Assembly (NCBI RefSeq): GCF_016862995.1
Contig: NZ_BOOA01000015.1
Coordinates: 62,001 to 126,000 of the forward strand
From: Acrocarpospora phusangensis
GTDB lineage: Bacteria > Actinomycetota > Actinomycetes > Streptosporangiales > Streptosporangiaceae
Reading direction: 5' to 3'
DNA: 64,000 nt
Below the pieces are notes generated by a model, which was not told the origin of the DNA, searched no databases, and saw only the letters and a list, made by a program, of their open reading frames with translations. The position numbers and the translations under genes were made by a program. Shown one piece after another: positions 10,252 through 64,000 of this stretch. Positions within the stretch are counted from its first letter, which is position 1. The number at the start of each line of letters is the position of its first letter.

Positions 10252-12483
10252 ATGTTCGACGCGGTTCTGGTCGCGAACCGGGGCGAGATCGCCGTCCGGG
10301 TGATCCGCACCCTGCGCGCCCTCGGCGTGCGCTCCGTCGCCGTCCACAGCGACGCCGACTCCGGCGCCCCCCACGTCCTCGCCGCCGACACGGCGGTACG
10401 GCTCCCGCACGGCTACCTCGACGTCGACGGCATCATCTCCGCCGCCCGCCGCTCGGGGGCCCAGGCCATCCACCCCGGCTACGGCTTCCTCGCGGAGAAC
10501 GCCGGATTCGCCCGGGCCTGCGCCGAGGCGGGCCTGGTCTTCGTCGGCCCGCCGCCGGAGGCCATCGAGGCGATGGGCGACAAGATCCGGGCCAAGGAGA
10601 CGGTCGCCAAGGCGGGCGTGCCCGTGGTGCCAGGAACGACCGGCGACCTGTCCGGCTGGACCGAGTTCCCGGCGCTGATCAAGCCCTCCGCCGGAGGCGG
10701 CGGCAAGGGCATGCTCCTCGTGCGCTCGGCCGCCGACCTCCCCGAGGCCATCGAGTCGGCCCGGCGCACGGCCCTGGCCGCCTTCGGCGACGGCACCCTG
10801 CTCATCGAACGCTTCGTCGCCAACCCCCGGCACATCGAGATCCAGGTGCTCGCCGACTCCCTCGGCAACGTGGTCCACCTGGGCGAACGCGAGTGCAGCC
10901 TCCAGCGCCGCCACCAGAAGATCATCGAAGAGGCCCCGTCCCCGTTCGTGGACGCCGCCACCCGCGAGCGCATGGGCTCCGCCGCCGTCGAGGCCGCCCG
11001 CTCCGTCGGGTACGTCGGCGCCGGAACCGTGGAGTTCATCGTCCCCGGCGGCGAGGGCCCCGGCGAGTTCTTCTTCATGGAGATGAACACCCGCCTCCAG
11101 GTCGAGCACCCGGTCACCGAACTCGTCTGCCGCGTCGGCGGAACCCCCATCGACCTGGTGGCCCTTCAACTCCACGTAGCCGCGGGCGACCCTCTCGGCT
11201 TCGACCAGGACGACGTCACCCTCACCGGCCACGCCGTCGAAGCCCGCGTCTACGCCGAGGACCCCCGCCGCGGCTTCCTCCCCACCGGCGGCACCGTCCT
11301 CGCCCTCCACGAACCCGCCGCCCCCGTACGCGTCGACTCCGGCCTGGCCCCCGGCCTCGTCATCGGCAGCGACTACGACCCCATGCTCTCCAAGGTCATC
11401 ACCTGGTCCCCCACCCGCGCCGCCGCCCTCCGCACCCTGCGCGAGGCCCTCTCCGAAACCGTCATCCTCGGCGTCCCCACCAACATCGCCTTCCTCCGGG
11501 CCTTGCTCGCCCATCCCGACGTCGTCGCAGGCCACCTGGACACCGGCCTGGTCGAACGCCACCTCGACACCCTCCTCACGAACCCCGAAATCTCGGAAAT
11601 TCCACCATTCGTCCTGGCGGTGGCCGCACTGCACTTCCACCCCGACGGATCCACGAGCGACGACCCCTGGGACGTCCCCGACGGCTGGCGCCTGGGCGAA
11701 CGCGCCTGGACGACATACCGCCTCGAATCCGGCGGCGACCTCACCGACGTCCGCATCCGCGGCACCCGCCACAACGCCGAGGTCGCGATCGGCGACACTG
11801 TCCTGTCCGCCGCCCTCGGCCAATCCGGAACGGCAACGGTCGACGGGATGACGAGGCGCTATGTCATCGCGCGCCCGGGTCTAGCCCTCGAGGGTGTGGG
11901 GCGCAGGCCCGAGTGGGCGGGCCAAAGCCTTGAGAGCACAGGACGACACCCTGCGGTGGTGGGGCAGAACCCTGAGACCGGGACGAATCCCGAGGCGGTG
12001 AGGCAAAGCGCTGAGACCGTTGGGTCGAGTCCTGTTTCGGCGACGCGGAGCCCCGAGGTGGCGAGCCGTGAGGGAATGGGGCGGAGCCCCGAGGTGGGGA
12101 GCCGTGGGGGGGCGGGGCGGAGCCCCGGGGGTGGACAAAGGGTGGGTGGGTGGGAGAACAGCGGTAACACGCTGTGGATCTCAGCCACCGGAACCTGGTC
12201 GGTGACGCTTCACGATCCAGGGGATCCGAGTGATCGTGCGAGCGCAAGCCGTACAGCCGACGGAACAGTTCGCAGTCCTATGCCGGGGACAGTCCTCATG
12301 GTGAAGGCCGCCGTCGGGGACAGAGTCGATGCCGGCCAGCCGCTCCTGATCGTCGAAGCGATGAAGATGGAACACGTCGTCACGGCCCCCATCGAAGGCA
12401 TCGTCACCGACCTCCCCATCCGCGCGGGCCAACAGGTCGCCATGGACACCCCCCTGGCCACCGTCACCCCGGAGGAACCGTAA
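10252..12483 (+). CDS. Acyl-CoA carboxylase alpha chain with repeat insert
   Basis: Biotin carboxylase and biotin carrier domains are on one 743-residue chain, making carboxybiotin for the preceding subunit. The ATP-grasp part runs to about 450 (GGGGKGML loop, EMNTRLQVEHPVTE). A linker domain follows, and the carrier is C-terminal with EAMKMEH, biotinyl Lys705. Residues 544-638 are a Gly/Pro/Ser-rich tandem repeat with no counterpart in the 638-residue paralogue at 46705-48621. The insert is in frame and falls between a beta strand ending RRYVIAR and one starting NTLWIS, so the enzyme may still work. The TAA overlaps the next ATG by 1 bp. Confidence 0.92.
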   Translation: MFDAVLVANRGEIAVRVIRTLRALGVRSVAVHSDADSGAPHVLAADTAVRLPHGYLDVDGIISAARRSGAQAIHPGYGFLAENAGFARACAEAGLVFVGPPPEAIEAMGDKIRAKETVAKAGVPVVPGTTGDLSGWTEFPALIKPSAGGGGKGMLLVRSAADLPEAIESARRTALAAFGDGTLLIERFVANPRHIEIQVLADSLGNVVHLGERECSLQRRHQKIIEEAPSPFVDAATRERMGSAAVEAARSVGYVGAGTVEFIVPGGEGPGEFFFMEMNTRLQVEHPVTELVCRVGGTPIDLVALQLHVAAGDPLGFDQDDVTLTGHAVEARVYAEDPRRGFLPTGGTVLALHEPAAPVRVDSGLAPGLVIGSDYDPMLSKVITWSPTRAAALRTLREALSETVILGVPTNIAFLRALLAHPDVVAGHLDTGLVERHLDTLLTNPEISEIPPFVLAVAALHFHPDGSTSDDPWDVPDGWRLGERAWTTYRLESGGDLTDVRIRGTRHNAEVAIGDTVLSAALGQSGTATVDGMTRRYVIARPGLALEGVGRRPEWAGQSLESTGRHPAVVGQNPETGTNPEAVRQSAETVGSSPVSATRSPEVASREGMGRSPEVGSRGGAGRSPGGGQRVGGWENSGNTLWISATGTWSVTLHDPGDPSDRASASRTADGTVRSPMPGTVLMVKAAVGDRVDAGQPLLIVEAMKMEHVVTAPIEGIVTDLPIRAGQQVAMDTPLATVTPEEP
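11881..12135. repeat. In-frame 21-bp tandem repeat in biotin carboxylase gene
   Basis: The anchor CYYGAG recurs at 11887, 11908, 11929, 11950, 11971, 11989, 12010, 12031, 12052, 12088 and 12124. Spacing is 21 bp except one 18-bp step and two final 36-bp steps, always a multiple of three. The protein shows a seven-residue beat such as GRRPEWA, GQSLEST, GRHPAVV, GQNPETG and finally RSPEVAS. The last two long units are nearly identical, which suggests recent duplication. The unit is unrelated to any known carboxylase domain. Confidence 0.85.
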
Positions 12484-14542: not shown

Positions 14543-14568
14543 CCTGGCGCGATTGATTTCTCAAAACA

Positions 14569-14603
14569 AACCGCCCTGTTCCCGATCGGGGAACAGGGCG
14601 GTT
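14569..14603. terminator. Strong terminator after the leucine operon
   Basis: AACCGCCCTGTTCCC pairs perfectly with GGGAACAGGGCGGTT around a 5-base loop. A-rich flank on the left and GTTCGTTATC on the right make it usable in both directions. It separates the acyl-CoA dehydrogenase gene from the opposing secreted-protein gene. Confidence 0.92.
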
Positions 14604-14622
14604 CGTTATCGCGGCCGACAGC

Positions 14623-15976: not shown

Positions 15977-15995
15977 CACGCGCCTGACACGCGCG

Positions 15996-16581: not shown

Positions 16582-16631
16582 GGCGTACGTCAAGAAGCCT
16601 GAGCGAACACCCTGGGGCGTGTCAGAAGGGG

Positions 16632-25475: not shown

Positions 25476-28106
25476 TTAGGTTCTCCGGCGGATGAGGGCG
25501 TCGGCGATGGTGACCCCGGTGGGGTGGACGAAGACGGGGTTCAGCTCGATCAGGTCCAGGTTCTCTGTTAGGGCCAGGGTGCCGAGTTGGGAGGCTAGGG
25601 CGGCTAGGGCGGGGACGTCGGATGGGGGTGTGCCTCGGGTGCCGGTGAGCAGGGGGGCTGCTTTGAGGCGGTGAATTTCTTGTTCGAGTCTTTGAGGGTC
25701 GGCGGGGAGGGGGATCAGGACGGCGTCGTCGAAGATTTCCACCCAGAGGCCGCCCAAGGCGACGACCACGACGGGCACGAGTCCGTCGCGCCTTACCGCG
25801 ATCATGACTTCGACTCCGGGGTCGGCCATCTCCTCGACCAGTACGGAGCCCAGCTCCGTCAGCCTTCTGTAAACGTCTCGGACGTTGTCGCGTGTTACGC
25901 CAAGCTCAAGGGCTGAAATATCCGACTTGTGTTGGATAAATGGTGAACTGGCTTTCATAGCCACTGGCCGGTTCAACTCGGTGGCGATGCCGACCGCGTC
26001 ATCCGCGCTGACTGCCACCCGTCCTCGTGGAACCGGCAACCCCCACGCCCTGAGCAGCCCTTTCGCCTCGTGCTCGGCCATCCACCCTGACGGCGACACC
26101 ACTTCCGCTCCGGACCCGCGCATCCGCTGCATCTGTTCCGTTCCGGAAGCACGCGTCCGCTGCATCTGTTTCGTTTCGGATCCGCATGTCGGCTGCATCT
26201 GTTCCAGGATTCCGGACTGCGGCGTCCGCTGCATCTGCTCCGTTCCGGACCTGCGTGTCCGCTGTGTCTCTTCCGTTACAGATCTACGCGTCTGCTGCAT
26301 CTGTTCCGTTCCGGACCTGCGTGTCCGCTGTGTGTCAGGACGTTCCTTCGCGTTGGGACCGGGAGTCGTCTGCATGCGGAGTTCGTCGGGTGTCCGGCGT
26401 TGCGGCCGGGTGGCGGCGGCGATGGCTCGGAGTCTGGCCGGGTCTGGCGGTGGGGTGGTCAAGGCGCCTGCGCACAGGATGCCCTCAGTCAGGCCGGCCA
26501 CCGGGACGATCCCGTGGGCTGCCAGACGTTCCGCGGTTTCCTCAGGCATCAGTTCAGGCAGCGTTGAGGCGACGATGATCGGCTGAGTCAGCCGCGAGGC
26601 GGCGAGAATCACACCATCCAGCGCGCCATCCCAACTCTCCGCCGCATCCTCAGTCATCTGGGCCGGGCGATCGTAGTAGACCAGAACGGGGCCGATGGCA
26701 TCATCCCGTGCGCCGACCGTGATGAGATCGGCCGTCCGTTCGGTCTCCCCGAAGATCACCGCCGTGTAATCCAGCGGATTCCCCGCCGTAGCCGTCGCCG
26801 GCAACACCCCCCGAAGCGCCTCCACAGTCTCCACCCCCAACCCCGGCAACCACACCCCCAAACGCTCCGCCTCATCCGCCGCCGTAGCCGCATCCCCACC
26901 CGAACAAGTCACCACAAGCACCCCGCGAGCACTCCCAGTGCCTCTCCCACCCACCCACCCTTTTCCACGCTCGCGCGCAGCCACCCCCGCCCTCTCGCCT
27001 CCGGCGATCGATGTCCCGCCCTCTTCCGCGATCGGCGTTCCGTCGTCTTTGGTGATCGAGGTGCGGCTGCCTCCGGTTACCGGTGTACCGCCGCTTTTGG
27101 CTATCGATGACCCGCTGCTTCCCTCCATCGGTGTTCCGCCGTCTTCGGCGGTTGTCGGATCGGCATTTCTCATGACGGACATTGGGCCGTTGGGAGTCCG
27201 TGTGTCAGTTGTTGTGGTTGTGAGGGGGCGGCGGGGGGTTGCCAGGGTTTTGGCTAGTTCTAGGAGTTCGTGGGGGTTTTGGGCCCAGGTGCCGCCGGCT
27301 TCTTGGATCAGGGCGCGGAGGAGGCGGGAGTCGCCGGTGATGGAGCCGGTGTGGGCGGCGGCGGCGGAGGCGCCCAGGGGGCTGGTGCCGGCTTTGAGGA
27401 CGGCGGTGCGGATGCCGTGGTCGGCGCAGTGGGCGAGGGCGGTGGCGAGGCGGTGGCCGTCGCCTTCGTCTTCGAGGTAGAGGGCGATGGAGCGGACGCC
27501 GTCGAGGTCGGCCAGGGCGGAGAGGTAGTCGGAGGCGTCGAGGACGGCCTGGTTGCCGCAGGAGATGACGGTGTGGAGGCCGAGGGCGCGGGTGCTGAGC
27601 AGGGCGTTGACGGCGACGTTGCCGCTTTGGGAGATGAGGGCGACCGGGCCTGGGCGGCGGGCGGTGTAGGCGTCACCCCAGAGGGGGGCGCGGTTGACCA
27701 CGGAGACGATGCCGTTGCCGTTCGGGCCGCAGATCGGGAGATCGTGGAGGTGAGCCTGGCGGGTGAGTTCGTCCTGGAGGTCGCGGCCTCCGGCGATCTC
27801 GGCGAATCCGGCGGCCAGGACGACGGCTCCGCCGCAGCCGTACGCTCCGGCTTCGGCCACGAGGGCGGGTACGCCGGCGGCCGGGGTGGCGATGACCAGG
27901 GCGTCGGGGGCGAGGGGAAGGTCGGAGATTCGGGGGACGCACGGGACCCCGTGGACCTGGGTGGCCGTGGGGTGGACGCCGAAGACGGGGCCGGGGAATC
28001 GGGCGCTGAGCAAGTTGGCCACGGCCTGGTTGCCGTACGAGCCGGGACGGGTGGAGGCGCCGACCACGGCGACGGACCTGGGCGCGAGCAGCCGTGCGGG
28101 TTTCAC
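25476..28106 (-). CDS. ADP-forming acyl-CoA synthetase with two repeat inserts
   Basis: One 876-residue chain carries the CoA-binding (1-130), CoA-ligase (140-480) and C-terminal ATP-grasp (670-876) domains of the acetate--CoA ligase (ADP-forming) family. Catalytic His252 is in AAHTGSI; GPNGNGI and ISQSGNV are also present. Two segments are foreign to the family: an 8-residue repeat at about 319-375, inside the ligase domain, and an 11-residue repeat at about 591-667, in the linker before the ATP-grasp. Both keep the frame. GTG 28106 was chosen as start because TTG 28136 would place the operator inside the gene. A divergent TetR gene follows. Confidence 0.88.
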   Translation of the reverse strand: MKPARLLAPRSVAVVGASTRPGSYGNQAVANLLSARFPGPVFGVHPTATQVHGVPCVPRISDLPLAPDALVIATPAAGVPALVAEAGAYGCGGAVVLAAGFAEIAGGRDLQDELTRQAHLHDLPICGPNGNGIVSVVNRAPLWGDAYTARRPGPVALISQSGNVAVNALLSTRALGLHTVISCGNQAVLDASDYLSALADLDGVRSIALYLEDEGDGHRLATALAHCADHGIRTAVLKAGTSPLGASAAAAHTGSITGDSRLLRALIQEAGGTWAQNPHELLELAKTLATPRRPLTTTTTDTRTPNGPMSVMRNADPTTAEDGGTPMEGSSGSSIAKSGGTPVTGGSRTSITKDDGTPIAEEGGTSIAGGERAGVAARERGKGWVGGRGTGSARGVLVVTCSGGDAATAADEAERLGVWLPGLGVETVEALRGVLPATATAGNPLDYTAVIFGETERTADLITVGARDDAIGPVLVYYDRPAQMTEDAAESWDGALDGVILAASRLTQPIIVASTLPELMPEETAERLAAHGIVPVAGLTEGILCAGALTTPPPDPARLRAIAAATRPQRRTPDELRMQTTPGPNAKERPDTQRTRRSGTEQMQQTRRSVTEETQRTRRSGTEQMQRTPQSGILEQMQPTCGSETKQMQRTRASGTEQMQRMRGSGAEVVSPSGWMAEHEAKGLLRAWGLPVPRGRVAVSADDAVGIATELNRPVAMKASSPFIQHKSDISALELGVTRDNVRDVYRRLTELGSVLVEEMADPGVEVMIAVRRDGLVPVVVVALGGLWVEIFDDAVLIPLPADPQRLEQEIHRLKAAPLLTGTRGTPPSDVPALAALASQLGTLALTENLDLIELNPVFVHPTGVTIADALIRRRT
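26109..26336. repeat. In-frame 33-bp tandem repeat
   Basis: The block CTGCATCTGTTCCGTTCCGG recurs at 26127, 26160, 26193, 26229, 26262, 26295 and partly 26328. Steps are 33 bp, with one 36-bp unit containing an extra AGGATT-type change. In the protein the unit reads RTRRSGTEQMQ. Units at 26127 and 26295 are identical over 21 bp, so expansion or gene conversion appears recent. Confidence 0.9.
26983..27150. repeat. In-frame 24-bp tandem repeat
   Basis: Seven consecutive 24-bp units start at 26983, 27007, 27031, 27055, 27079, 27103 and 27127, with no indels; the unit is close to ATCGGTGTTCCGCCGTCTTC plus GGCG. In the protein, eight-residue units read AEDGGTPM, EGSSGSSI, AKSGGTPV, TGGSRTSI, TKDDGTPI and AEEGGTSI. 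Divergence between units is moderate, so this array looks older than the 33-bp one in the same gene. Confidence 0.88.
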
Positions 28107-28115
28107 CCTATCTAG

Positions 28116-28138
28116 ACTGGTTGGTTGACCAGTCAACC
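28116..28138. promoter_or_regulatory. Shared TetR-type operator, copy A
   Basis: GGTTGAC-CA-GTCAACC (28123-28138) is a perfect palindrome, and a second overlapping symmetry ACTGGT-N6-ACCAGT starts at 28116. It sits 10-32 bp before the GTG of the acyl-CoA synthetase gene, over its promoter, and about 65 bp before the divergent TetR gene. It matches sites at 31676 and 38407 under the consensus CTGRYTGGKTGMCCARTYAR. Confidence 0.75.
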
Positions 28139-28200: not shown

Positions 28201-28836
28201 GTGCGCAGTGCGGAGGGCGCCCGGAGTAGCCGGGCCGATCAGGCTGATCAGCGCCGGGCCGAACTGCTGGACGCCGCCCGGCGCGTCGTGCTGGAGCGAG
28301 GGCTGGCGAGCACCCGTGTCGCCGACATCGCGAAGGCCACCAATGTCAGCGGTGGCTTGATCCATTACCATTTCGCCACCAAGGACGATCTCATCACCGC
28401 GATGCTCCGCGCCACCTCGGAAACCGAGGTCAAACGGCTGCGTGAGATCATCGCCGGGCCTGGTACGGCCGTCCAGCGCCTCGACCGGGTGCTGCGCTAC
28501 TACATTCCCAGCTCCCGCTCCGACCAGAGCTGGATCCTCTGGCTGGACGCCTGGGCGCTCGGTGTGCGCGAGCCCCACGTCCGCGAGATCCTGCTCGAAC
28601 TCGAAGGCGGCTGGATCGAGATCCTCGCCGAGGTCATCTCCGAGGGCGTAGCCAAGGGCGAGTTCTTCTGCGACGACCCGGTAGGCGCCGCGGAACGCCT
28701 CGACGGCATGCTCGACGGCCTCGTCGTCCGCTACACCCTGCACTCCGGCGCCATGTCCCGCAAACGCCTCCTCGAACACGCCCGAATCGCCGCCACCCAC
28801 GAGGTAGGCATCCCCCGCTCCGCCTTCCCCGCCTAA
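28201..28836 (+). CDS. TetR-family regulator with BetI-type C-terminal domain
   Basis: The 211-residue repressor has its DNA-binding domain at residues 17-65 (RRAELLDAARRVVLERGLAS and TNVSGGLIHYHFATKDDLI). The C-terminal part (WILWLDAWALGVREPHVREI, LDGMLDGLVVRYTLHSG) resembles the BetI-like TetR_C domain. GTG 28201 stands seven bases after TAGTCT, so the mRNA is probably leaderless. It diverges from the acyl-CoA synthetase gene across the palindrome at 28116-28138, which makes it the first candidate for binding the shared operator family. The ligand is unknown. Confidence 0.9.
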   Translation: MRSAEGARSSRADQADQRRAELLDAARRVVLERGLASTRVADIAKATNVSGGLIHYHFATKDDLITAMLRATSETEVKRLREIIAGPGTAVQRLDRVLRYYIPSSRSDQSWILWLDAWALGVREPHVREILLELEGGWIEILAEVISEGVAKGEFFCDDPVGAAERLDGMLDGLVVRYTLHSGAMSRKRLLEHARIAATHEVGIPRSAFPA

Positions 28837-28841
28837 CCCAC

Positions 28842-29330
28842 CCCCGAACGACCCACGTCGTTCTTCCGTACCTGATCCACCCTCCGGGCGGCCCGTGTTG
28901 TTCATCCGCGCCTGAGTAACCCTTCGGCTGCAGCATCATTCCCGACCTGAACCGCCCGAACGACCCACGTCGTTCTTCCGTGCCTGGGTAACTCTTCGGG
29001 CGCGGGCGTCGTTCCCGACCTGAGCCGCCCCCGGAGGGCGTGTGTCGTTCTTCCGCGCCCGAGTAGCTCTCCGGACGGCGAGCGTCGTTCCCGACCTGAG
29101 CCGTCCCCGAACGACCCACGTCGTTCTTCCGCGCCTGAGTCGCTCTTCGGGGCCTCCGTGTCGTCTTTCCCGCTTGAGCCCCCCTCAGATAGCCCATGTC
29201 GCTTTCCCGTCCGAGTCGCTATCTGGGCGACCGGAGTCGTTTCCCCGCCTGAGTTGATCCCTGGGCAATCGGCGTTGTCTTGCCCGCCTGAGCTACCCTC
29301 AGCGGCCCGCGTCGTCGCCACGTGCTCGAA
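28842..29330. repeat. Noncoding tandem array, about 13 units of ~38 bp
   Basis: The core GTCGTTC (or one-base variants) recurs at 28857, 28897, 28935, 28969, 29008, 29044, 29084, 29120, 29160, 29198, 29236, 29274 and 29311. Steps are 34-40 bp, mean near 38, and not multiples of three. The unit continues TTCCGCGCCTGAGT and CTCTTCGGG. Units 1, 4 and 8 contain the hairpin GAACGAC-CCAC-GTCGTTC. The array fills the gap between convergent TetR and GNAT genes. Open frames across it on the minus strand only reflect base composition. Confidence 0.88.
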
Positions 29331-29768
29331 CGCAGACCAGGATTCCGATGGCCGTCCTCATTTCACGACGCCACGCCTGCTATCAGCGGAAACGACCGAC
29401 GCCGCCCACCCTCACCAGTTGGACCAGGCGTAAGCAATCCAGGGCCTCGGAGGCGCGGCCTTTGGGAGTGTGGTCATCCGACCCGGGCCTTGCTACGGGA
29501 CCCCCTCGCGCCTGCATGGGACGGAATTTCGTGCGGCTCAGGCCATGGAGACGGAACCGCGCCACGCCTGCATGGGACGCATGAGTCGCAGCTGGGCCCT
29601 GACCAGCCGATCTCATTTTTGGGGACAGAACCGACTTGTGCTGGCGTGGGCGGCTCGCAGGTGAGGCTGGCAAACCGACCTGAACCCGAAACGAATGCAC
29701 AGTCACATCTGCGTGGGACGCGAACTGGTGGCTGGGTTCTGGTCGGCTGGCCTGGGCTGGGAGGTGGG
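29331..29768. other. Gene-free stretch with degenerate direct repeats
   Basis: No coding frame is convincing here. CGCCTGCATGGGACG occurs twice (29510-29524 and 29566-29580), with similar sequence following each copy for about 40 bp, and a weaker third copy (CATCTGCGTGGGACG) is at 29706-29720. The block therefore looks like further decayed repeat DNA next to the array. Confidence 0.6.
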
Positions 29769-30476
29769 TCAGGTTTGGGTTAGGTGGGGGACGCGGAGGG
29801 CGTTGAAGGTGGTGTGGCGGCGGAGGGTGAAGCCGAGGGATTCGTAGAGGGGGATGGCGGGGTTGTGGGCGGCGGCGTGGAGGAAGGGGGTTTCGCCGCG
29901 GGAGCGGATTCCGGCGGCGACGGCGAGGATCAGGCGGGTGGCGAGGCCTTGGCCGCGGTGGGCGGGGTCGGTGCAGACGGCGCTGATCTCGGTCCAGCCG
30001 GGTGGGTGGAGGCGTTCTCCCGCCATCGCGACAAGTGCGCCGTTCCGGCGGATGCCGAGGTAGTCGCCCATTTCGATGGTGCGCGGCAGGAAGGGTCCTG
30101 GCTGGGTATGGGCGGTGAGGTCGAGCATGTCGGGGACGTCGGCGGCCGTCAGGCGTACGGCTTCCGCGTCGGGTTCGCCCCACACAGCCTCACCGGAGAG
30201 CTGTACGCCGGGGACAACCTGCACGATTTCCCATGCGGGCGGCGGCTGCGAGCGTCCGAGCGGTGCCGCGACGATGGTGCCGGGCCCTGCCAGGGCGGCG
30301 ATGGCGTCCCAGTCGTCCGCCGTCGGGTCGCCGGCCATGGCCAGGAAGGGTGACATGTCGACCGGGTAACGGGCGACTCCGCCGCGCCGCTCCGCGAAGG
30401 AGGCGTGCGGGCCGCTGAGCGACTCCCACACCGGGTTGTCCAAAATATGACTCATCGGTCCCGCTTCCAAACCCAT
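29769..30476 (-). CDS. GNAT-family N-acetyltransferase (FR47-like)
   Basis: The 235-residue protein has an N-terminal half of variable sequence and a C-terminal GNAT core. The core shows YLGIRRNGALVAMAGERLH, then EISAVCTDPAHRGQGLATRL (acetyl-CoA loop RGQGLA) and AAAHNPAIPLYESLGFTLRR. This matches FR47-like acetyltransferases. The start may be ATG 30476 (AGGTAGGA five bases before) or ATG 30455. The AT-rich DNA upstream (30477-30500) suggests its promoter. Substrate unknown. Confidence 0.88.
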   Translation of the reverse strand: MGLEAGPMSHILDNPVWESLSGPHASFAERRGGVARYPVDMSPFLAMAGDPTADDWDAIAALAGPGTIVAAPLGRSQPPPAWEIVQVVPGVQLSGEAVWGEPDAEAVRLTAADVPDMLDLTAHTQPGPFLPRTIEMGDYLGIRRNGALVAMAGERLHPPGWTEISAVCTDPAHRGQGLATRLILAVAAGIRSRGETPFLHAAAHNPAIPLYESLGFTLRRHTTFNALRVPHLTQT

Positions 30477-30660
30477 AATTCCTACCTAAATAATATAGAT
30501 ATGTCAACCTCGGTAATGCCGCAACGCCTCCTCGGTTCGCCCCGACGCGTGTTCATGGGCGTCACGGGCTCGGACAGCCCTGCACGCCGCCGACGGCATC
30601 GGGACCATCACCCAGAGCACGCCCACTCAGCCCACCCAGAGCACGCAGACTACCCAGCCG

Positions 30661-30873
30661 GTGGTGACAGCCAAGCGCGGCCGCGCCCGCAAGTCGGACT
30701 CACCCTCACCGCCGACCAAGGTCGACTCGGTCACCATGGACGACGGCACCGGCTACGAGCCCTCGTTACTGTGGGACAAGGCGAAGAACCAAGGACTACC
30801 TCAGGTCTTCGGCCGCCCGATCAGGTGGCGGCGCGAAGGCCGGACGTACGTGGCGGAACTCGCGGAGGTCTGA
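30661..30873 (+). CDS. Possible small protein, maybe the end of a broken gene
   Basis: A 70-residue frame ends one base before the DUF427 gene, whose ribosome site GGAGG lies within it. The C-terminal half (DGTGYEPSLLWDKAKNQGLP and VFGRPIRWRREG) looks protein-like. Upstream the same frame stays open for about 50 more codons without an ATG, GTG or TTG, and includes TQSTPTQPTQSTQTTQP, encoded by a duplicated 24-bp unit (30609 and 30633). A different frame starts at ATG 30501 (MSTSVMPQRLLGS). A frameshift near 30585 joining the two is possible. Confidence 0.4.
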   Translation: MVTAKRGRARKSDSPSPPTKVDSVTMDDGTGYEPSLLWDKAKNQGLPQVFGRPIRWRREGRTYVAELAEV

Positions 30874-30874
30874 G

Positions 30875-31612
30875 ATGTCATACGACGGAACGTTCAACTG
30901 GGAGCCCAGCCGGCGCTGGGTGCGCGGCGTCAAGGGCGGCACCACGGTCGTCGACAGCAAGGCCCCGCTGCTGGTGTGGGGCCCCACCCACCCGGTCCCG
31001 CACTACGCGTTCCCGATCGAGGACGTACGCGCCGACCTGTTCACACCCGCCGAAAGCCGGCCCGGCCACTTCGACCTGACCGTCGACGGGGAGACGATCG
31101 CCGACGCTGCGTTCGCGCATCCGGAGCTGCCCGGGCACCTGACGATCGCGTGGTTCCGCCACGCGACGCCGGTCCTGGACCACTGGTACGAGGAAGAGGA
31201 GGAGATCTTCGTGCATCCTCGCGACCCCTACAAGCGGGTGGACCCGATTCCCAGCTCCCGGCACGTACGGGTCGAGATCGGCGGCCGGGTGGTCGCCGAC
31301 ACGCGCGCCCCGGTGCTGCTCTACGAGACCGGGCTGCCGACGCGCTACTACGTGCCGCCCAATGACGTGGACTTCTCGCTGCTGGAGCCGACCGACAGCA
31401 GTACGCGGTGCCCGTACAAGGGGGAGGCGTCGTACTGGTCGCTGCGGGAGCCCGTCGAGGGCGTGCCCGCCGACGTGGCGTGGGCGTACCACGCCCCAAT
31501 TCCGGCCGCCGCCCCGATCAAGGGTTACGTGGCGTTCTATAACGAGTTCGTCGACATCATCGTGGACGGGGTCAAGGAAGAGCGCCCCGAGACGGTGTTC
31601 AGCAGGCGATAG
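30875..31612 (+). CDS. Tandem DUF427 protein
   Basis: The 245-residue protein is two DUF427 units in series. The first covers about residues 10-110 (VRGVKGGTTVVDSKAPLLVW, then LDHWYEEEEEIFVHPRDPYK). The second covers 125-235 (VRVEIGGRVVADTRAPVLLY, YYVPPNDVDFSLLEPTDSST, CPYKGEASYWSL, IKGYVAFYNE). DUF427 is a small beta-rich domain with poorly known biochemistry. GGAGG is well placed before the ATG. A GGGTGAC/GTCACCC hairpin (31626-31649) follows. Confidence 0.9.
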   Translation: MSYDGTFNWEPSRRWVRGVKGGTTVVDSKAPLLVWGPTHPVPHYAFPIEDVRADLFTPAESRPGHFDLTVDGETIADAAFAHPELPGHLTIAWFRHATPVLDHWYEEEEEIFVHPRDPYKRVDPIPSSRHVRVEIGGRVVADTRAPVLLYETGLPTRYYVPPNDVDFSLLEPTDSSTRCPYKGEASYWSLREPVEGVPADVAWAYHAPIPAAAPIKGYVAFYNEFVDIIVDGVKEERPETVFSRR

Positions 31613-31625
31613 GAGGCGTCGTCGC

Positions 31626-31649
31626 GGGTGACGGGCAGGCATGTCACCC
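31626..31649. terminator. Possible terminator after DUF427 gene
   Basis: Arms GGGTGAC and GTCACCC pair perfectly over a 10-base loop, 13 bp after the stop. The stem is short, so termination is uncertain. A TTGACA box follows at 31652-31657 and may be the -35 of the acyl-CoA dehydrogenase gene. Confidence 0.45.
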
Positions 31650-31675
31650 TCTTGACAGCCCCACTCCTTGGCGAT

Positions 31676-31699
31676 TTGACTGGGTGACCAATCAGTTAA
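31676..31699. promoter_or_regulatory. Shared TetR-type operator, copy B
   Basis: TTGACTGGGTGACCAATCAG plus TTAA is an imperfect palindrome (TTRACTGR at each end). It ends where the ribosome site AAGGAG begins and covers the -10 to +20 area of the acyl-CoA dehydrogenase gene, downstream of TTGACA (31652-31657). It matches copies A and C closely. Confidence 0.75.
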
Positions 31700-35459: not shown

Positions 35460-36287
35460 CTAGAACGAGGCCATCTCCTCCAGTGCCTTGGTGCCCGTAC
35501 GGCGGCGCAGCACCAGCCAGGCCAGGATCAGGGCCAGGGCGGAGCCGGCCACCAGGAGCGTGGCGAGGGCGTTGAGCGCGGGGGTGGGGGCGTTCCTGAC
35601 CGCCGTGTACAGCTTGATCGGCACGGTGGCCGAGGACGCGTCGGGCGACAGGAAGGCGGAGATCACGAAGTCGTCCATCGAGGAGGCGAAGACGATCATC
35701 GCTCCCGCGAAGACGGCCGGGGCCAGCAGCGGCAGCAGGATCAGCCGGAGCGCCTGCAGCCTGCTGCACCCCAGGTCGCGCGCGGCGTCCTCGTAGTCCT
35801 GCCCGATCGACGCCAGCCGCGACCGTACGATCACCACCACGTACGACACCGAGAACGTCACGTGCCCGAGCACCTGCGCCGGCAGCCCCAGCGGCACGAA
35901 CAGGTACAGGTTCGTGAACACCAGGTACAGCGCGCTGCCCATGACGATCTCGGGCGTGGCCAGCGGCAGCAGCATCAGCCCGTTGGCGACCCGGCTGGTC
36001 CTGCCCTTCCAGCGGGCCAGGCCGAGCGCCATCGCCACCCCGAGCGGGGTCGCGACCAGCGTGGTCAGCACGGCCAGGATGAGGCTGTTGACCAGCGCGA
36101 GCCGCAGCGACGGATCCTCGGCCACCGACCCCGACCCGCCGAAGTACCACTGCGTGGAGAACCCCTGCCAGGCGCTGCGCGACTTGCCGTCGTTGAAGGA
36201 GAACTGGATCGCCACCAGCACCGGCACCAGCGACCAGATCACGTACGCCCAGGTCAGGGTGGCCAGAAAGATCGGACGCCGTCTCAC
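35460..36287 (-). CDS. potC: Polyamine-type ABC importer permease (PotC-like)
   Basis: The 275-residue permease starts at GTG 36287, sharing GTGA with the potB stop. It has six helices and the EAA-type loop EDAARDLGCSRLQALRLILL (near residue 175), which contacts the ATPase. MDDFVISAFLSP late in the chain is typical of spermidine/putrescine PotC proteins. The operon order is potD-potB-potC, with no potA ATPase in the window, so the pair must borrow one from elsewhere. Confidence 0.93.
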   Translation of the reverse strand: MRRRPIFLATLTWAYVIWSLVPVLVAIQFSFNDGKSRSAWQGFSTQWYFGGSGSVAEDPSLRLALVNSLILAVLTTLVATPLGVAMALGLARWKGRTSRVANGLMLLPLATPEIVMGSALYLVFTNLYLFVPLGLPAQVLGHVTFSVSYVVVIVRSRLASIGQDYEDAARDLGCSRLQALRLILLPLLAPAVFAGAMIVFASSMDDFVISAFLSPDASSATVPIKLYTAVRNAPTPALNALATLLVAGSALALILAWLVLRRRTGTKALEEMASF

Positions 36288-37177
36288 GCGGCCACCTCCT
36301 CGGCCCGGCGGGAGGCCACCAGGTAGTACGCCATCAGCACCATCAGCAGCGCCGACATGAGCAGCACCAGCGACGCGCCCAGCTCCTTGCGGTTGCCGCC
36401 CAGCAGGTAGAACTCGATCTGGTTGGCCACCATCGTGGTGGTGGGGGAGCCCGACACCAGCGTGTTCGTGTAGTAGTCCCCGAACATGGGCAGCGCCGTG
36501 ACCGCACCCGCCGTCATCAGCCCGGACCGGGACAGCGGCAGCGTGACGTGCCAGAAGGCCGTCCGCCCCGAGCAGCCCAGGTCGCGGGCGGCCTCCAGCA
36601 GCCGCTCGTCGATCCGGTCCAGCGAGGAGAACAACGGCACGATGAAGAACGGGATGTACCCGTAGACGAGGGCCAGCACCACCGTCACCGGGTTGCCCGA
36701 CAGCCACCGCACCGGCTCGTCCACCAGGCGGGTGAGCAGCAGCAGGTCGTTGACGTACCCGTCGTCCTGCAGCAGGTTGAGCCAGGCCAGCATGCGGGTG
36801 ATGTAGTTGACCCACCACGGCGTCAGGATCAGCGCCAGCAGCAGCCCCCGCCGCCTGCCGGCGTGCCTGGCCAGGTAGTACGCCACCGGGTAGCCCACCA
36901 GCATGCAGACCGCCAGCGCCAGCAGCACGTAGAGCAGGGTGCGCAGGAACACCGGCCGCAGGTCGCCGGAGACCGACCGCCGCACGATCTCGTTGAACGC
37001 GGTGAAGTCCCAGTAGCGCGGGTCCCACTCGGGCACGGGCGAGTTGAACACCGGGTCGGTGTACCCGAAGGCCACGGCGGCGACCGCGTAGAACGGCACC
37101 GCGAACAGCGCCACGATCCACAGCGTGCCGGGGGCGGCCAGCGCCGCCCACAGCCCGGTGCGGCCCCGACGCGTCAC
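36284..37177 (-). CDS. potB: Polyamine-type ABC importer permease (PotB-like)
   Basis: This is the other membrane subunit, 297 residues. It shows WWVNYITRMLAWLNLLQDDG and the EAA loop EAARDLGCSGRTAFWHVTLP, both usual in PotB. GTG 37177 gives a GTGA overlap with the potD stop and leaves a short MTRRGRTGLWAAL start; an upstream GTG at 37201 would extend it into potD without need. Translational coupling on both sides suggests equal synthesis with PotC. Confidence 0.93.
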   Translation of the reverse strand: MTRRGRTGLWAALAAPGTLWIVALFAVPFYAVAAVAFGYTDPVFNSPVPEWDPRYWDFTAFNEIVRRSVSGDLRPVFLRTLLYVLLALAVCMLVGYPVAYYLARHAGRRRGLLLALILTPWWVNYITRMLAWLNLLQDDGYVNDLLLLTRLVDEPVRWLSGNPVTVVLALVYGYIPFFIVPLFSSLDRIDERLLEAARDLGCSGRTAFWHVTLPLSRSGLMTAGAVTALPMFGDYYTNTLVSGSPTTTMVANQIEFYLLGGNRKELGASLVLLMSALLMVLMAYYLVASRRAEEVAA

Positions 37178-38512: not shown

Positions 38513-40174
38513 GTGGACCTGAAGCAGACCGACCTGAAGCAGACCGACCTGAAGGCCGACGTGAAGTCCGACCTGAAGCAGAACTACGACGCCATCGTCA
38601 TCGGCGGCGGGCACAACGGGCTCGTCACGGCCGCGTACCTCGCGCGGGCGGGCCTCAAGCCGCTCGTCCTGGAGGCCCGCTCCGTCACCGGGGGAGCGGC
38701 CACGACCGAAACGCCCTGGGGTCCCGACTTCAAGGTGACCGCGCTCTCGTACGTGATGAGCCTCATGCCCCCCACGATCCTCAACGACCTCCGCCTGACC
38801 CAGCACGGCTACCGGGTCATCCCGATGGGCCCCAGTTTCGTGCCCTTCCCCGACGGCCGCTCCCTGCTCACCGAGACCGGCGACCCCGCCCACGAGCACG
38901 CCCAGCTCGCCGCCTTCAGCAAGAAGGACGCCGAGAACATGCCGAAGTACGAGGCGTGGCTGCGTGGCATCGGCGACGTGCTCTCCCCGCTGCTGATGAA
39001 GACCCCGCCCAACGTCGGCTCCACCCGCCCCGGCGACCTGCTGGCCCAGCTCCGGCTGGCCTGGGGCATGCGCGGCCTGTCCACCCGGGGCACCGCCGAC
39101 GCCGTACGCCTGTTCACCATGTCGGTCTCCGACCTGCTCGACGAGTGGTTCGAGTCGCCCGAGGTGAAGGGCATGATGGCGATCAACGGGGTGATCGGCA
39201 CCTGGGCCGGTCCGGCCGAGCCCGGCACCGCGTACGTGATGATGCACCACACCATCGGCGACGTCGGCGACGGCAAGATGGGCAGCTGGGGTTACCCGGT
39301 CGGCGGCATGGGGGCGGTCAGCGCCGCCATCCGCGCCTCGGCGGAGGCGTTCGGGGCGACCGTGCTCACCGACGCCCCGGTCGAGCGCATCCTGGTGTCG
39401 GGCGGCCGGGTCACCGGCGTCGCGCTCCGCGACGGCCGCGAGTTCCGGGCCGGTACGGTGGTCGCCGCCACCCACCCGAGGATCACCTTCCTGGAGCAGC
39501 TCGACCGCGCGGACCTCCCGGACGACTTCGTCGCCGACATCGAGCGCTGGCGCTCCCGCAGCGGCGTCGTCAAGATCAACGTGGCCCTCTCCGAGCTGCC
39601 CACCTTCACCGCCAGCCCCGGCCTGACCGAGGAGCAGCTCAGCGGCTCCGTCGAGCTCTGCCACTCCATCGAGTACGTCGAGCGGGCCTTCCAGGACGCC
39701 CGCGCGGGACGCCCGGCCGCCGCCCCCTTCGCCGACAGCGTGATCCCCTCCACCCTGGACCGCACGCTCTGCCCCGAGGGCACCCACATCATGTCGATGT
39801 TCACCCAGTGGGTCCCGCACACCTGGGCGGACGAGCCGCACACCGAGGAGCTGGACGCCTACGCCGACCGCGTGATCGAGGGCTACGACCAGCTGGCCCC
39901 GGGCTTCAAGGCCTCCGTCCTGCACCGCCAGGTGATCGGCCCGCACCAGATGGCCGAGGAGTACGGCCTGGTCGGCGGCAACATCTTCCACGGCGAGCTC
40001 TCCCCGGACCAGCTCTTCCACCTGCGGCCCGCCCCGGGCTTCGCCGACTACACCACGCCCGTGAAGGGCCTCTACCAGTGCTCGTCCGCCACCCACGGGG
40101 GCGGCGGGGTGACCGGGATCGCCGGATATCTGTGCGGCAGGCGTGTTCTCAAGGACAGGAAGTGGTGGCGATGA
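38513..40174 (+). CDS. FAD-dependent oxidoreductase with repetitive N-terminus
   Basis: This 553-residue relative of the 20641 protein has [20 protein letters not shown] after a charged leader and ends with CSSATHGGGGVTGIAGYLCG. The leader (residues 2-23) is a repeat of DLKQT and DLKAD-type units, encoded by 15, 15, 12, 12 and 12 bp copies of GACCTGAAG. The family usually starts at about residue 22, so the leader is an added piece. GTG 38513 follows AGAAGGGG. The next gene overlaps by ATGA. By context it may oxidise an amine taken up by PotD, but its substrate is not known. Confidence 0.85.
   Translation: MDLKQTDLKQTDLKADVKSDLKQNYDAIVIGGGHNGLVTAAYLARAGLKPLVLEARSVTGGAATTETPWGPDFKVTALSYVMSLMPPTILNDLRLTQHGYRVIPMGPSFVPFPDGRSLLTETGDPAHEHAQLAAFSKKDAENMPKYEAWLRGIGDVLSPLLMKTPPNVGSTRPGDLLAQLRLAWGMRGLSTRGTADAVRLFTMSVSDLLDEWFESPEVKGMMAINGVIGTWAGPAEPGTAYVMMHHTIGDVGDGKMGSWGYPVGGMGAVSAAIRASAEAFGATVLTDAPVERILVSGGRVTGVALRDGREFRAGTVVAATHPRITFLEQLDRADLPDDFVADIERWRSRSGVVKINVALSELPTFTASPGLTEEQLSGSVELCHSIEYVERAFQDARAGRPAAAPFADSVIPSTLDRTLCPEGTHIMSMFTQWVPHTWADEPHTEELDAYADRVIEGYDQLAPGFKASVLHRQVIGPHQMAEEYGLVGGNIFHGELSPDQLFHLRPAPGFADYTTPVKGLYQCSSATHGGGGVTGIAGYLCGRRVLKDRKWWR
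38516..38581. repeat. Short tandem repeat at the start of the FAD oxidoreductase gene
   Basis: The unit GACCTGAAGCAGACC occurs twice (38516 and 38531), followed by 12-bp forms at 38546, 38558 and 38570. All steps are multiples of three. The first two are identical, so slippage may be recent. Confidence 0.85.
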
Positions 40175-59714: not shown

Positions 59715-59731
59715 CGCACTAGCATGTGATC

Positions 59732-60661: not shown

Positions 60662-60665
60662 GCCG

Positions 60666-60893
60666 TCATTCGTCCAGCGCGGCCAGCCGCCGGTAGGCCG
60701 GGCGGAGCAGGTCCAGGACCGGGATGTGCCTGATCTTGATGGGTGGCGGTTCCAGCGCGCGCAGCAGCAGGTCGGCCGGGGTGGGCGGCGACGGCGGCGC
60801 CTTCAGCCGCGCCAGCGAGACCGAGGGCGCGTAGAAGTCGTCCAGCCGGTCCGCGAACGGCACATCGGTGACATCCAGCTCGTCGTCGATCAT
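60666..60893 (-). CDS. Small protein coupled to the SNF2 helicase gene
   Basis: This 75-residue frame starts at an ATGA overlap with the helicase stop, so it is translationally coupled. It opens acidic (MIDDELDVTDVPFADRLDDF) and then has a Pro-rich middle and IRHIPVLDLLRPAYRRLAAL at the end. SNF2 genes of actinobacteria often have a zinc-finger SWIM protein next to them; this product has no Cys and cannot be that. It may be an adaptor or a remnant. Confidence 0.65.
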   Translation of the reverse strand: MIDDELDVTDVPFADRLDDFYAPSVSLARLKAPPSPPTPADLLLRALEPPPIKIRHIPVLDLLRPAYRRLAALDE

Positions 60894-63800
60894 CGCACCG
60901 CCTCCGGGCCGAGCCGGAACAGGTCGCGCAGCTGGTCGGCCGACAGGTCCGCCAGCCAGTCCTCGCCCGTGCCGACCACGCTGTCGGCCAGGGCCAGCTT
61001 GCGTTCGATCATCTCGTCCACCCGCTCCTCCAGCGTGCCCACACAGATGAACTTCCTGACCTGCACGTTCCTCGTCTGGCCGATCCGGAACGCCCGGTCG
61101 GTGGCCTGGTTCTCCACGGCCGGGTTCCACCACCGGTCCACGTGGATGACGTGGTTGGCGGCGGTCAGGTTGAGGCCGGTCCCGGCCGCCCGCAGCGACA
61201 GCAGGAAGATCATCGGCTCGTCGTCGCCCTGGAAGCGGTCCACCAGCTCGTCCCGCCGCCGTTTGCTCAGCCCGCCGTGCAGCCACAGCACCGGCCGGTC
61301 CAGCCGCGCCTCCAGGTACGGCTGGAGCATGGTCCCGAACTCCGCGTACTGCGTGAAGACCAGCGCCTTGTCGCCCTCTTCGACGATCTCCTCGGCCAGC
61401 TCCTCCAGCCGGGCCAGCTTGCCGGAGCGGCCGTCCAGCCGGGAGCCGTCCTTGAGCAGGTGCGCCGGATGGTTGCAGACCTGCTTCAGCCGGGTCATCG
61501 CGGCCAGCACGTTGCCGCGCCGCTCGATGCCGTCGCTGCCCTCGATCCGGCCCATCATCTCCGCCACCACGGCCTGGTAGAGGCGGGCCTGCTCGGGGGT
61601 GAGCGTGCACCAGACCTTCATCTCCTGCTTGTCCGGCAGGTCGGAGATGATCGTCTTGTCGGTCTTGAGGCGGCGCAGCACGAACGGCCCGGTGGCTCGG
61701 CGCAGGGCGCTCATCGCGTTCTCGTCCCGGCGGGTCTCGATCGGCTCCTGGTAGCGGTACCGGAACGCCCGCGCCGGGCCGAGCAGGCCGGGGTTGCAGA
61801 ACTCCATGATCGACCAGAGCTCGGCCAGGTGGTTCTCCACCGGGGTGCCGGTCAGCGCCAGCTTGGTCCTGGCCCGGATCTGGCGGACCGCCTGGGCCTG
61901 CCGGGCCGCGCTGTTCTTGATCGCCTGGGCCTCGTCGCAGACCACCCGCTCCCAGCCCTGCCGGGCCAGCGCGCCCAGGTCCCGCAGGGCGGTGCCGTAG
62001 GTGGTGACGACCAGGTCGGCCGCCGCGACGGCCGAGGCCAGGTCCTCGTCGCGGTGGCGGGAGGCGCCGTGATGGATGTAGAGGCGCAGGCTGGGCGCGA
62101 ACCTGGCGGCCTCCTTCTGCCAGTTGTTGATCAGCGACATCGGGCAGACCAGCAGAGTCGCGGGCGGCCTCGCGCCGTCCTCCCGCTCGGCCAGCAGCAG
62201 CGAGAGCGTCGTGATCGTCTTGCCCAGGCCCATGTCGTCGGCGAGGATGCCGCCGAGACCGAGCCCCGACAGGAAGGCCAGCCAGGCCAGGCCGCGCTCC
62301 TGGTACGGGCGGAGCGCGCCGTCCAGGGTGGGGGGGGTGGGGACGGGGCGCAGCCGGCGTTCGGTCTCGCCGGAGAGCAGGTCGCCGAGCAGGCCGTCGG
62401 CGTCCACCTCCACCAGCGGCAGCTCCTCCGCGCCGCCGAGCACCACCTCGCGGATGACGTCGCCCACGGTCCGCTCGGTCACCCGGCGGTCCTCGACGGC
62501 GCGCAGGGCGGCCTTCAGCTGGCGGTCGTCCAGCTCCACCCACGAGCCGCGGACGCGGACCAGCGGGACCTTGAGGCGGGCCAGTTCGGCCAGTTCGGCC
62601 TCGCCGATCACCTGGTCGCCGACGGCGAGGTCCATCCGGAAGTCGACCGTCTCGCGCAGGCCCATGTTGGGGGGTCCGGGGCGGGAGCGGGTGGTCATCT
62701 TGAGGCCCAGGCGGGTTCTGCCGACCCACGGGGGGAGGCGCACGCCGTACCCGGCGGCTTCGAGCAGGGGGGCGGAGTGGCGGAGGAACGCGAACGCGCC
62801 CCGGGTGTCCACGCGCATCCCGGTGGGGCGCGGCTCGCGCAGGGCCCGGTCCAGGTCGGGGTAGAGGCGGACCGCCCGGTTCAGCCCGGCGCGCAGCACA
62901 CGCTCCGGGTCGGGGGCGCCGGGGAAGTCCGCGCCCGCCCAGACCCGGGAGGCCGGGACGCGCACATCCGGCTCCTCGGCGGAGCACAGGCCGAACTCCA
63001 CCCGCCAGTCGCCGTCCCCGACCGGCTCGACCAGGCGGAACTCCACCCTGACCGGGCCGCCGAGCCCGCGCGCCGCCGCGAACCACGCGGTCAGCGCCGC
63101 CGTCAGCGCCGCGGCCTCGTCCGGTTCCACCTCGTCCAGCCGCGGGTCCGCGTCGGTCAGCGCCAGCAGCCAGCGATCCGCCAGCGCGGCCTTCCGCCCC
63201 GGCCGGTACGCCCCGATGAGCCGCTCCGGGAAGCCCCGCCGCGCCGCCGCGTCCACCAGCTCCGTCAGCGCCCCCAGCAGAACCTTGCCCGACCGCCCCT
63301 CCTCCTGCCCGGCACCCTCCTGTACGGCCCTGCACACCGGCGGCATCGCCACCGCCAGCTCCCGGAACCGCCGGGCATCCGCCCCCGTCAGCACCGGCCG
63401 CCAGCGCGCCTCGTCCCCGGCCAGCCACGGCAGGATGCGCCCCCGCCGGACCAGATCCCGCGCGAACTCCCCAACGATCCCGAAATACCGCACCGAAGGC
63501 CCAGGAATCGCATCAAACTCCTCCGGCGTGTACGGCAACAACGGCACCCGCCACCGCGCCAACCGAGGGTTCTTGACCACCTCATCGGTCCCCAGCTCGG
63601 GCGAGGGCACCGGCCCACGCCCCGAACTGGGCAGCACCAGCACGGCGACCGGCTGTCCGGCGGACCCGGCCCCGGATCGGGTGGTCGTGCGCATGCCCGG
63701 CTGAACGCTTCGACCGCCCGCCTGAGCGCTTTCTTCGAGACGTCGGCCGCCCGGCTGGGCGATCCGCGAACTGCCCGATGGAGCGCTCGTCTGGGCGTCC

Positions 63801-64000
63801 GTCTGAACGGTTGCCGTTCGAGCGGGATCCGCGGCCCTGGGCTTCGCGGTCCCGAGGGTCGGGGCCCTGGAAGTTGCGGGCCTGCTGTTCGCTGTGGCCG
63901 GGAGCGTCGGCATGGCCCAGATGGGCAGCGCGAACGGGTGATCGCGGACCTCGGAGCGCGAGCGGGACGTCAGGGGCAGCGTGCTGTCCTCGGCCCACAG
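60890..64000 (-). CDS. SNF2/RapA-type helicase, 5' end beyond the window
   Basis: At least 1036 residues are present; the frame stays open to the window edge (LWAEDSTLPL near it), so the start is outside. The ATPase core is complete: ILADDMGLGKTITTLSLLLA (motif I), VVCDEAQAIKN (DEAQ box), LVFTQYAEF, and QATDRAFRIGQTRNVQVRKF (motif VI). The N-terminal part carries the region typical of actinobacterial SNF2 proteins (LPYTPEEFDAIPGPSVRYFG). Between the edge and that part lies a Ser/Arg/Gly-rich segment coded at 63690-63900, with repeated motifs. Function in DNA remodelling or repair is inferred from family. Confidence 0.93.
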   Translation of the reverse strand: MWAEDSTLPLTSRSRSEVRDHPFALPIWAMPTLPATANSRPATSRAPTLGTAKPRAADPARTATVQTDAQTSAPSGSSRIAQPGGRRLEESAQAGGRSVQPGMRTTTRSGAGSAGQPVAVLVLPSSGRGPVPSPELGTDEVVKNPRLARWRVPLLPYTPEEFDAIPGPSVRYFGIVGEFARDLVRRGRILPWLAGDEARWRPVLTGADARRFRELAVAMPPVCRAVQEGAGQEEGRSGKVLLGALTELVDAAARRGFPERLIGAYRPGRKAALADRWLLALTDADPRLDEVEPDEAAALTAALTAWFAAARGLGGPVRVEFRLVEPVGDGDWRVEFGLCSAEEPDVRVPASRVWAGADFPGAPDPERVLRAGLNRAVRLYPDLDRALREPRPTGMRVDTRGAFAFLRHSAPLLEAAGYGVRLPPWVGRTRLGLKMTTRSRPGPPNMGLRETVDFRMDLAVGDQVIGEAELAELARLKVPLVRVRGSWVELDDRQLKAALRAVEDRRVTERTVGDVIREVVLGGAEELPLVEVDADGLLGDLLSGETERRLRPVPTPPTLDGALRPYQERGLAWLAFLSGLGLGGILADDMGLGKTITTLSLLLAEREDGARPPATLLVCPMSLINNWQKEAARFAPSLRLYIHHGASRHRDEDLASAVAAADLVVTTYGTALRDLGALARQGWERVVCDEAQAIKNSAARQAQAVRQIRARTKLALTGTPVENHLAELWSIMEFCNPGLLGPARAFRYRYQEPIETRRDENAMSALRRATGPFVLRRLKTDKTIISDLPDKQEMKVWCTLTPEQARLYQAVVAEMMGRIEGSDGIERRGNVLAAMTRLKQVCNHPAHLLKDGSRLDGRSGKLARLEELAEEIVEEGDKALVFTQYAEFGTMLQPYLEARLDRPVLWLHGGLSKRRRDELVDRFQGDDEPMIFLLSLRAAGTGLNLTAANHVIHVDRWWNPAVENQATDRAFRIGQTRNVQVRKFICVGTLEERVDEMIERKLALADSVVGTGEDWLADLSADQLRDLFRLGPEAVR
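63690..63830. repeat. Degenerate in-frame repeat in the SNF2 helicase gene
   Basis: CTGRRCG-type motifs recur at 63701, 63722, 63755, 63779, 63791 and 63803, with steps of 21, 33, 24, 12 and 12 bp. All are multiples of three, but the units are much less alike than in the other arrays. The encoded protein is low complexity (Ser, Gly, Arg, Gln). It may be a decayed array, or just an unstructured linker. Confidence 0.45.

What the first reader, a model, noticed from the sequence alone, without database searches (positions are those of the whole stretch)
11881..63830. Tandem repeats of different unit length inside conserved enzymes and one intergenic gap
Seen: arrays of 21 bp (11881-12135), 33 bp (26109-26336), 24 bp (26983-27150), about 38 bp noncoding (28842-29330), a 15/12-bp set (38516-38581), a 24-bp duplication (30609-30656) and a degenerate set (63690-63830). 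Coding arrays always step in multiples of three; the noncoding one does not. They fall in linkers or loops of enzymes whose cores are intact. Unit sequences differ, so they are not copies of one mobile element. Inference: this genome has a process that starts and expands short repeats at many loci, with selection keeping only in-frame, tolerated ones. I do not know a described system that does this.
Basis: partly seen in the sequence, partly recalled or inferred. Interest (0 to 1): 0.85.

Follow-up and report, generated by a model that had tools for sequence, protein, structure and literature searches.

The report
Dispersed hairpin element behind repeat arrays
Some of the odd repeats inside this soil bacterium's enzymes end in the same small folded DNA element, scattered about 40 times over its genome and found only in its genus among the genomes searched, while other repeats there are ordinary, locally grown ones.

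Summary
Five of seven listed arrays are real; one is marginal, one not significant. They are of two kinds. (1) Private minisatellites: unit unique to the locus, different in sister Acrocarpospora species, near-neutral between copies (pN/pS 0.76, 0.94); two loci show stepwise copy number (1,1,2,2,5 and 1,1,1,2,3). (2) Two arrays, in the carboxylase and in synthetase linker 1, end in one dispersed element: typically a short GNA/GNNA-loop hairpin with variable stem, a short spacer, then AAGGGTGGGTGGGTGGG. That core occurs 41 times in this genome (reversed-pattern control 3), 2-14 times in four congeners, in none of 36 other genomes. Hairpins sit upstream of it (1.08 per 150 nt; downstream 0.07; control 0.03). 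Tandem arrays lie only upstream at 13 places, only downstream at one. The carboxylase site is filled in three Acrocarpospora species, empty in two. Synthetase linker 1 carries it sense here, antisense in A. macrocephala. So 'not copies of one mobile element' is wrong for two arrays. Overall array density is ordinary for the family. How the element moves is unknown.

The parts
10252..12483 (+). biotin carboxylase/carrier protein, host
   Evidence: Pfam Biotin_carb_N, CPSase_L_D2, Biotin_carb_C, BT_MCC_alpha, Biotin_lipoyl
11881..12135 (+). degenerate 21/36-bp array; its last part repeats a 36-bp unit holding the hairpin GGGGC-GGA-GCCCC (12078-12090, 12114-12126)
   Evidence: 0/1000; hairpins; region 170 residues here, 71-102 in 10 aligned homologues; related insert in A. 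pleiomorpha and A. macrocephala
12137..12154 (+). core of the dispersed element, directly downstream of the array
25476..28136 (-). ADP-forming acyl-CoA synthetase-like protein, host of two linker arrays
26946..26963 (-). second core of the dispersed element, on the gene's sense strand, about 20 bp downstream of the 24-bp array
26983..27150 (-). 24-bp array (8-residue unit) in linker 1
   Evidence: 0/1000; linker 1 is 112 residues here, 15 in A. catenulata; pN/pS 0.94 over six units
26103..26336 (-). 33-bp array (11-residue unit) in linker 2; no element core; three units hold TCCG-GAA-CGGA hairpins
   Evidence: 0/1000; linker 2 is 132 residues here, 29-33 in the shortest orthologues; pN/pS 0.76 over six units, one irregular unit left out; hairpins 0/500 shuffles
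28201..28836 (+). TetR-family regulator
28842..29330 (.). intergenic 76-bp degenerate array, no element core
   Evidence: no other match in the genome below E 0.17; blocks on either side lie about 59 bp apart in A. catenulata
36262..36333 (-). single copy of a 68-bp unit that is tandem in A. macrocephala (2) and A. pleiomorpha (about 3), at the stop/start junction of two permease-domain genes
38516..38581 (+). 15/12-bp array encoding DLKQT-like units at the N-terminus of the FAD oxidoreductase 38513-40174

Best explanation
Two processes overlap. (A) Locus-private minisatellites arise by local tandem duplication and grow by slippage or unequal exchange, decay almost neutrally, and survive in genes only in frame; seen step by step at two loci, inferred at the 33-bp and intergenic arrays. 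(B) A dispersed element limited to Acrocarpospora among the genomes searched, with a short GNA/GNNA-loop hairpin, a short spacer and a four-fold GGGT/GGG run, has come to sit in intergenic DNA and, in either orientation, in at least two enzyme linkers; its core has no stop in any of six frames. Its 5' side is often tandemly amplified with hairpin units particular to the locus. The likely reason (inferred) is that hairpin and G-run stall replication and make the 5' side slip. How the element is copied to new places is not known.
For: B: core 41 times here against 3 for the reversed pattern; 4, 2, 8 and 14 in four congeners; 0 in 36 other genomes. The shorter 13-mer core: 55 here (control 8), 39 in A. 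catenulata (control 1), 0 in nine other genera. Hairpin of any loop of 3-6 within 12 nt upstream in 54 of 65 usable copies, 262 of 1197 random places; strict GNA/GNNA hairpins 1.08 upstream, 0.07 downstream, 0.03 control per 150 nt, with stems that differ but stay complementary (CGGGGC, GCGGGC, CGAGC, GCCGC; GACCC, CGACC in A. catenulata). TRF array within 100 bp in 22 of 41 copies against 150 of 1443 random places of the same loci; by place, 13 upstream only, 1 downstream only, 4 spanning. Filled and empty sites: carboxylase filled in this genome, A. pleiomorpha and A. macrocephala, empty in A. corrugata and A. catenulata; synthetase linker 1 three antisense copies beside a gap in A. macrocephala, 28 residues and no copy in A. 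pleiomorpha, which is 94.1% identical over aligned DNA. A.
Against: For the 13-mer the excess is weak in A. macrocephala (14 against 8) and absent in A. pleiomorpha (9 against 8). In A. catenulata only 2 of 14 copies have an array within 100 bp, and 5 of 28 in the four congeners together, so the array link rests mainly on this genome. GNA hairpins are not in excess in the genome at large (113 against 110 control loops in 544 kb) and only 3 of 113 lie in arrays, so hairpins do not explain arrays in general. No target-site duplication, transposase or RNA intermediate was shown. The 33-bp, 39-bp and carboxylase units had no detectable local seed (19 to 494 of 500 random places as good). The seed of the intergenic array was found in one of five targets (0/300; the others 11, 33, 35 and 72 of 300).
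Confidence: 0.66

Rival explanations
1. Everything is ordinary minisatellite growth, and the shared G-rich core is only a favoured simple sequence of this high-GC genus.
For: GGGT runs are simple; private arrays exist.
Against: The reversed pattern of equal composition occurs 3 times against 41; a complementary hairpin and the trend to AGAACCACCG after the run accompany the core; 0 in 36 other genomes.
Confidence: 0.15
2. A REP-type element moved by a Y1 (IS200/IS605-like) transposase.
For: Hairpin elements of this sort are known to be moved by such enzymes (recalled).
Against: No Y1_Tnp match in this genome, which has the most copies; in 13 fetched Y1 loci of four congeners and one other genus no core was found nearby. 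Loss of the enzyme after spread is not excluded.
Confidence: 0.1
3. Longer linkers are adaptive and repeats are the quickest way to lengthen them.
For: The same linkers were lengthened in several species.
Against: pN/pS near 1 between units; unrelated peptides; orthologues without any insert.
Confidence: 0.06
4. Assembly artefact.
For: Assemblies break at the element: 4 of 41 cores here lie within 100 bp of a contig end; A. pleiomorpha breaks inside the carboxylase array.
Against: Copies are diverged and in unique surroundings, in five assemblies; breaks are what a dispersed repeat causes.
Confidence: 0.02

Closest known systems
Rickettsia palindromic elements
   Same: Short dispersed elements inserted in frame in unrelated genes (PMC10969869, passages)
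   Different: Those are about 150 bp; here a hairpin plus a G-run of about 45-70 bp with locus-specific tandem units on one side; only five of 41 copies were placed in open frames with Pfam domains
REP / palindromic units and BIMEs
   Same: Short hairpins in many, mostly intergenic copies, sometimes in clusters (PMC2884548 names palindromic units and mosaics; passages)
   Different: No Y1 transposase in this genome; G-run core; tandem units of private sequence
Bacterial minisatellites / VNTR
   Same: Tandem units, copy number differing between relatives, coding units mostly multiples of three (PMC1853098, passages)
   Different: Units here 12-145 bp rather than 3-16; shown between species only
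Relaxed-selection evolution of protein repeats
   Same: Copies diverge under relaxed selection (PMC5120217, abstract and outline)
   Different: Here orthologues without any repeat are at hand

Membership tests
Dispersed repeat element | Many homologous copies at unrelated loci above control | tested here: met
Dispersed repeat element | Filled and empty orthologous sites | tested here: met
   carboxylase and synthetase linker 1
Transposon or MITE | Terminal inverted repeats and target-site duplications | not tested
   no systematic edge analysis was made
REP element moved by a Y1 transposase | Y1 transposase in the genome, flanked by the element | tested here: not met
   none in this genome; 13 loci elsewhere without a core nearby
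Rickettsia palindromic element | In-frame insertion in genes | tested here: met
   two enzymes in the window; it is not a homologue test
Rickettsia palindromic element | Sequence homology to a described family | not tested
   no family sequences were compared; Rfam gave no match at its thresholds in 8 loci
Bacterial minisatellite / VNTR | Tandem copies beyond chance | tested here: met
   five of seven stretches
Bacterial minisatellite / VNTR | Copy number differs between related genomes | tested here: met
   between species
Bacterial minisatellite / VNTR | Polymorphic within one species | not testable with these tools
   one genome per species held

The most novel reading that the evidence does not exclude
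Acrocarpospora carries a new kind of small mobile DNA element: a GNA-loop hairpin with freely changing but complementary stem, joined to a G-quadruplex-type run that is open in all six frames. It inserts in both orientations into intergenic DNA and enzyme linkers and sets off tandem amplification of its 5' side, so that every locus grows its own private array. This would tie repeat birth in enzymes to one definable DNA structure.
Probability: 0.4. Interest if true: 0.68.

Novelty: new variant of a known kind. Interest (0 to 1): 0.55.

Why it matters
It would give a concrete DNA element, with filled and empty sites in sister species, from which in-frame repeats grow inside ordinary enzymes: a testable link between a hairpin/G-run structure, replication slippage and the growth of protein linkers. 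It also explains why short-read assemblies of this genus break at these places.

Tried and rejected
One search (74 arrays of score 80 or more plus two added stretches, word 11, E 1e-3) found no match elsewhere for 51 of 74, including the window's five tested stretches, but my carboxylase stretch stopped at 12135, two bases before the core. could compare the carboxylase array with A. corrugata only and the intergenic array with nobody.

Local origin of the large arrays: not found. Repair genes as cause of genus differences: NucS, MutS_V, Ku and DinB-type counts do not track array density in 14 genomes. NucS is reported unable to correct indels (PMC8228993, abstract and passages) and MutS_V is missing here, but loops of 15-76 nt are beyond MutS too (recalled). 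Differences in density between genera shrink for strong arrays: at score 150 this genome has 29/Mb, the three densest 43, 29 and 64. E. coli K-12: 0 in 50 kb, upper limit 74/Mb, so that control is weak. GNA hairpins as a general cause of arrays: rejected. A covariance model was not built: the alignment misplaced the hairpins. Wrong frames for four Herbidospora orthologues were redone, where two of 30 linker measurements failed. In one search, 8 of 19 sequences fell out, A. pleiomorpha and A. macrocephala among them; these two were then read. Density samples are convenience stretches and include conserved structural repeats.

Papers: ten searches, all before the element was found; no paper search was made for the element itself. 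Only named the genus (0 papers with 'tandem repeat'). Passages only were seen of PMC2884548, PMC12817950, PMC4487206, PMC7230257, PMC1853098, PMC10969869 and PMC8228993; abstract and outline of PMC5120217.

Full report
Setting. The window is G000:C15:62001-126000 of a 9.11-Mb, 219-contig genome. Orthologues of its synthetase-like protein lie on contigs whose lengths equal those of Acrocarpospora pleiomorpha (G001), A. corrugata (G002), A. macrocephala (G003) and A. catenulata (G004). The genome itself is unnamed here. Long stretches of the window are collinear with the fetched contigs of all four, at 76-91% identity in the larger blocks apart from some 71-73% hits.

The arrays. Five of seven listed stretches are clear tandem repeats. 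In the synthetase-like protein linker 1 measures 15 residues in A. catenulata, one Micromonosporaceae MAG and two Virgisporangium, 16-43 in five Herbidospora, 107 in H. cretacea, 28 and 35 in A. pleiomorpha and A. corrugata, 112 in the window, and 287 with unknown residues in A. macrocephala. Linker 2 measures 29-33 in seven, 39 and 44 in A. pleiomorpha and one Virgisporangium, 59 and 60 in two Herbidospora, 96 in A. corrugata, 132 in the window and 133 in A. macrocephala; one measurement failed for each linker. The last two are built of unrelated units, 33 and 39 bp.

Private minisatellites. At the FAD oxidoreductase the DLKQT codons occur once in A. catenulata and (irregularly) A. corrugata, twice in A. 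pleiomorpha and A. macrocephala, about five times here; the Herbidospora compared has another N-terminus. The window array matches the A. catenulata and A. pleiomorpha sites better than 500 random places; A. corrugata 34 of 500, Herbidospora 482 of 500. A 68-bp unit at the stop/start junction of two permease-domain genes occurs once here, in A. corrugata and in A. catenulata, twice in A. macrocephala and about three times in A. pleiomorpha. Its length need not be a multiple of three there. Copies in linkers diverge almost neutrally.

The dispersed element. On rechecking, the carboxylase array turned out to continue into AAAGGGTGGGTGGGTGGG, and the same 18 bases follow the 24-bp array of synthetase linker 1. 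The 17-base core occurs 41 times in the genome, 4, 2, 8 and 14 times in the four congeners and in none of 36 other genomes; the reversed pattern occurs 3, 1, 0, 1 and 1 times in the five. All 69 copies were read. Upstream lies a short perfect hairpin, most often with loop GGA, GAA, GCA or GCCA, whose stem differs between copies and stays complementary; strict hairpins number 1.08 per 150 nt upstream, 0.07 downstream and 0.03 in control sequence. Downstream the bases tend to AGAACCACCG, which can pair with the end of the G-run (seen by eye). d(GCGNAGC) is, as I recall, an extraordinarily stable DNA mini-hairpin, and GGGTGGGTGGGTGGG a G-quadruplex motif; neither was tested. The 28-base string tried has no stop in any of six frames.

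Element and arrays. In this genome 22 of 41 copies have a TRF array within 100 bp (150 of 1443 random places in the same loci); counted by place, 13 have it only upstream, one only downstream, four span the core. The unit often holds the hairpin of that locus, repeated. In the window, both arrays that touch a core lie on its 5' side. In the congeners 5 of 28 copies have an array nearby.

Filled and empty sites. The carboxylase insert is present in this genome, in A. pleiomorpha (contigs break inside it) and in A. macrocephala (a run of N inside it), and absent in A. corrugata, A. catenulata and eight further homologues. Synthetase linker 1 has a sense copy here and three antisense copies beside a gap in A. 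macrocephala, none in A. pleiomorpha, A. corrugata or A. catenulata, whose linkers are 28, 35 and 15 residues. Three more cores lie in open frames with Pfam domains: a MatE/polysaccharide-export-like protein, a LysR-like regulator (antisense) and a condensation/AMP-binding protein; two further open frames had no Pfam match. Whether those frames are translated through the core was not shown.

How common are arrays? TRF arrays of score 60 or more per Mb: this genome 92 (50 in 544 kb; triplet shuffles 7.7), congeners 44-82, Herbidospora 71, eight other genera of the family 25, 42, 50, 142, 190, 214, 250 and 379. Array growth as such is therefore not special to this genome; the element is special to the genus within what was searched.

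Mechanism. Shown: dispersion, hairpin, one-sided arrays in this genome, filled and empty sites. Inferred: slippage of the 5' side at a hairpin/G-run block. Unknown: how copies spread. No Y1 transposase was found in this genome, and no known Rfam family at its thresholds in eight loci (two weak matches, E 0.022 and 0.63, far below their cut-offs).

Noticed in passing
L065:7360-7659 (G000:C15:27360-27659): Noncoding 112-bp array whose unit has diverged copies in L138:13263-13315 (same genome) and L128:16807-16872 (A. corrugata); possibly a second dispersed element.
   Followed up: no
window 26103-26336: Three units of the 33-bp array hold a TCCG-GAA-CGGA type hairpin (0/500 shuffles) although no G-run core is there.
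   Followed up: partly
window 28837-31683: Insertion hot spot between a TetR gene and an acyl-CoA dehydrogenase gene: about 59 bp between aligned blocks in A. catenulata, different extra sequence in each other Acrocarpospora.
   Followed up: partly
L250 (G000:C50:8000-11500): Five cores within 500 bp in both orientations, three of them in an 86-bp tandem.
   Followed up: partly
G009, G029, G031 samples: Three other genera of the family have 214-379 TRF arrays per Mb at score 60, without the element core in their genomes by the 13-mer; cause unknown.
   Followed up: partly
L060:4561-7549 (G000:C8): Five different arrays within 3 kb, units 12 to 60 bp.
   Followed up: no
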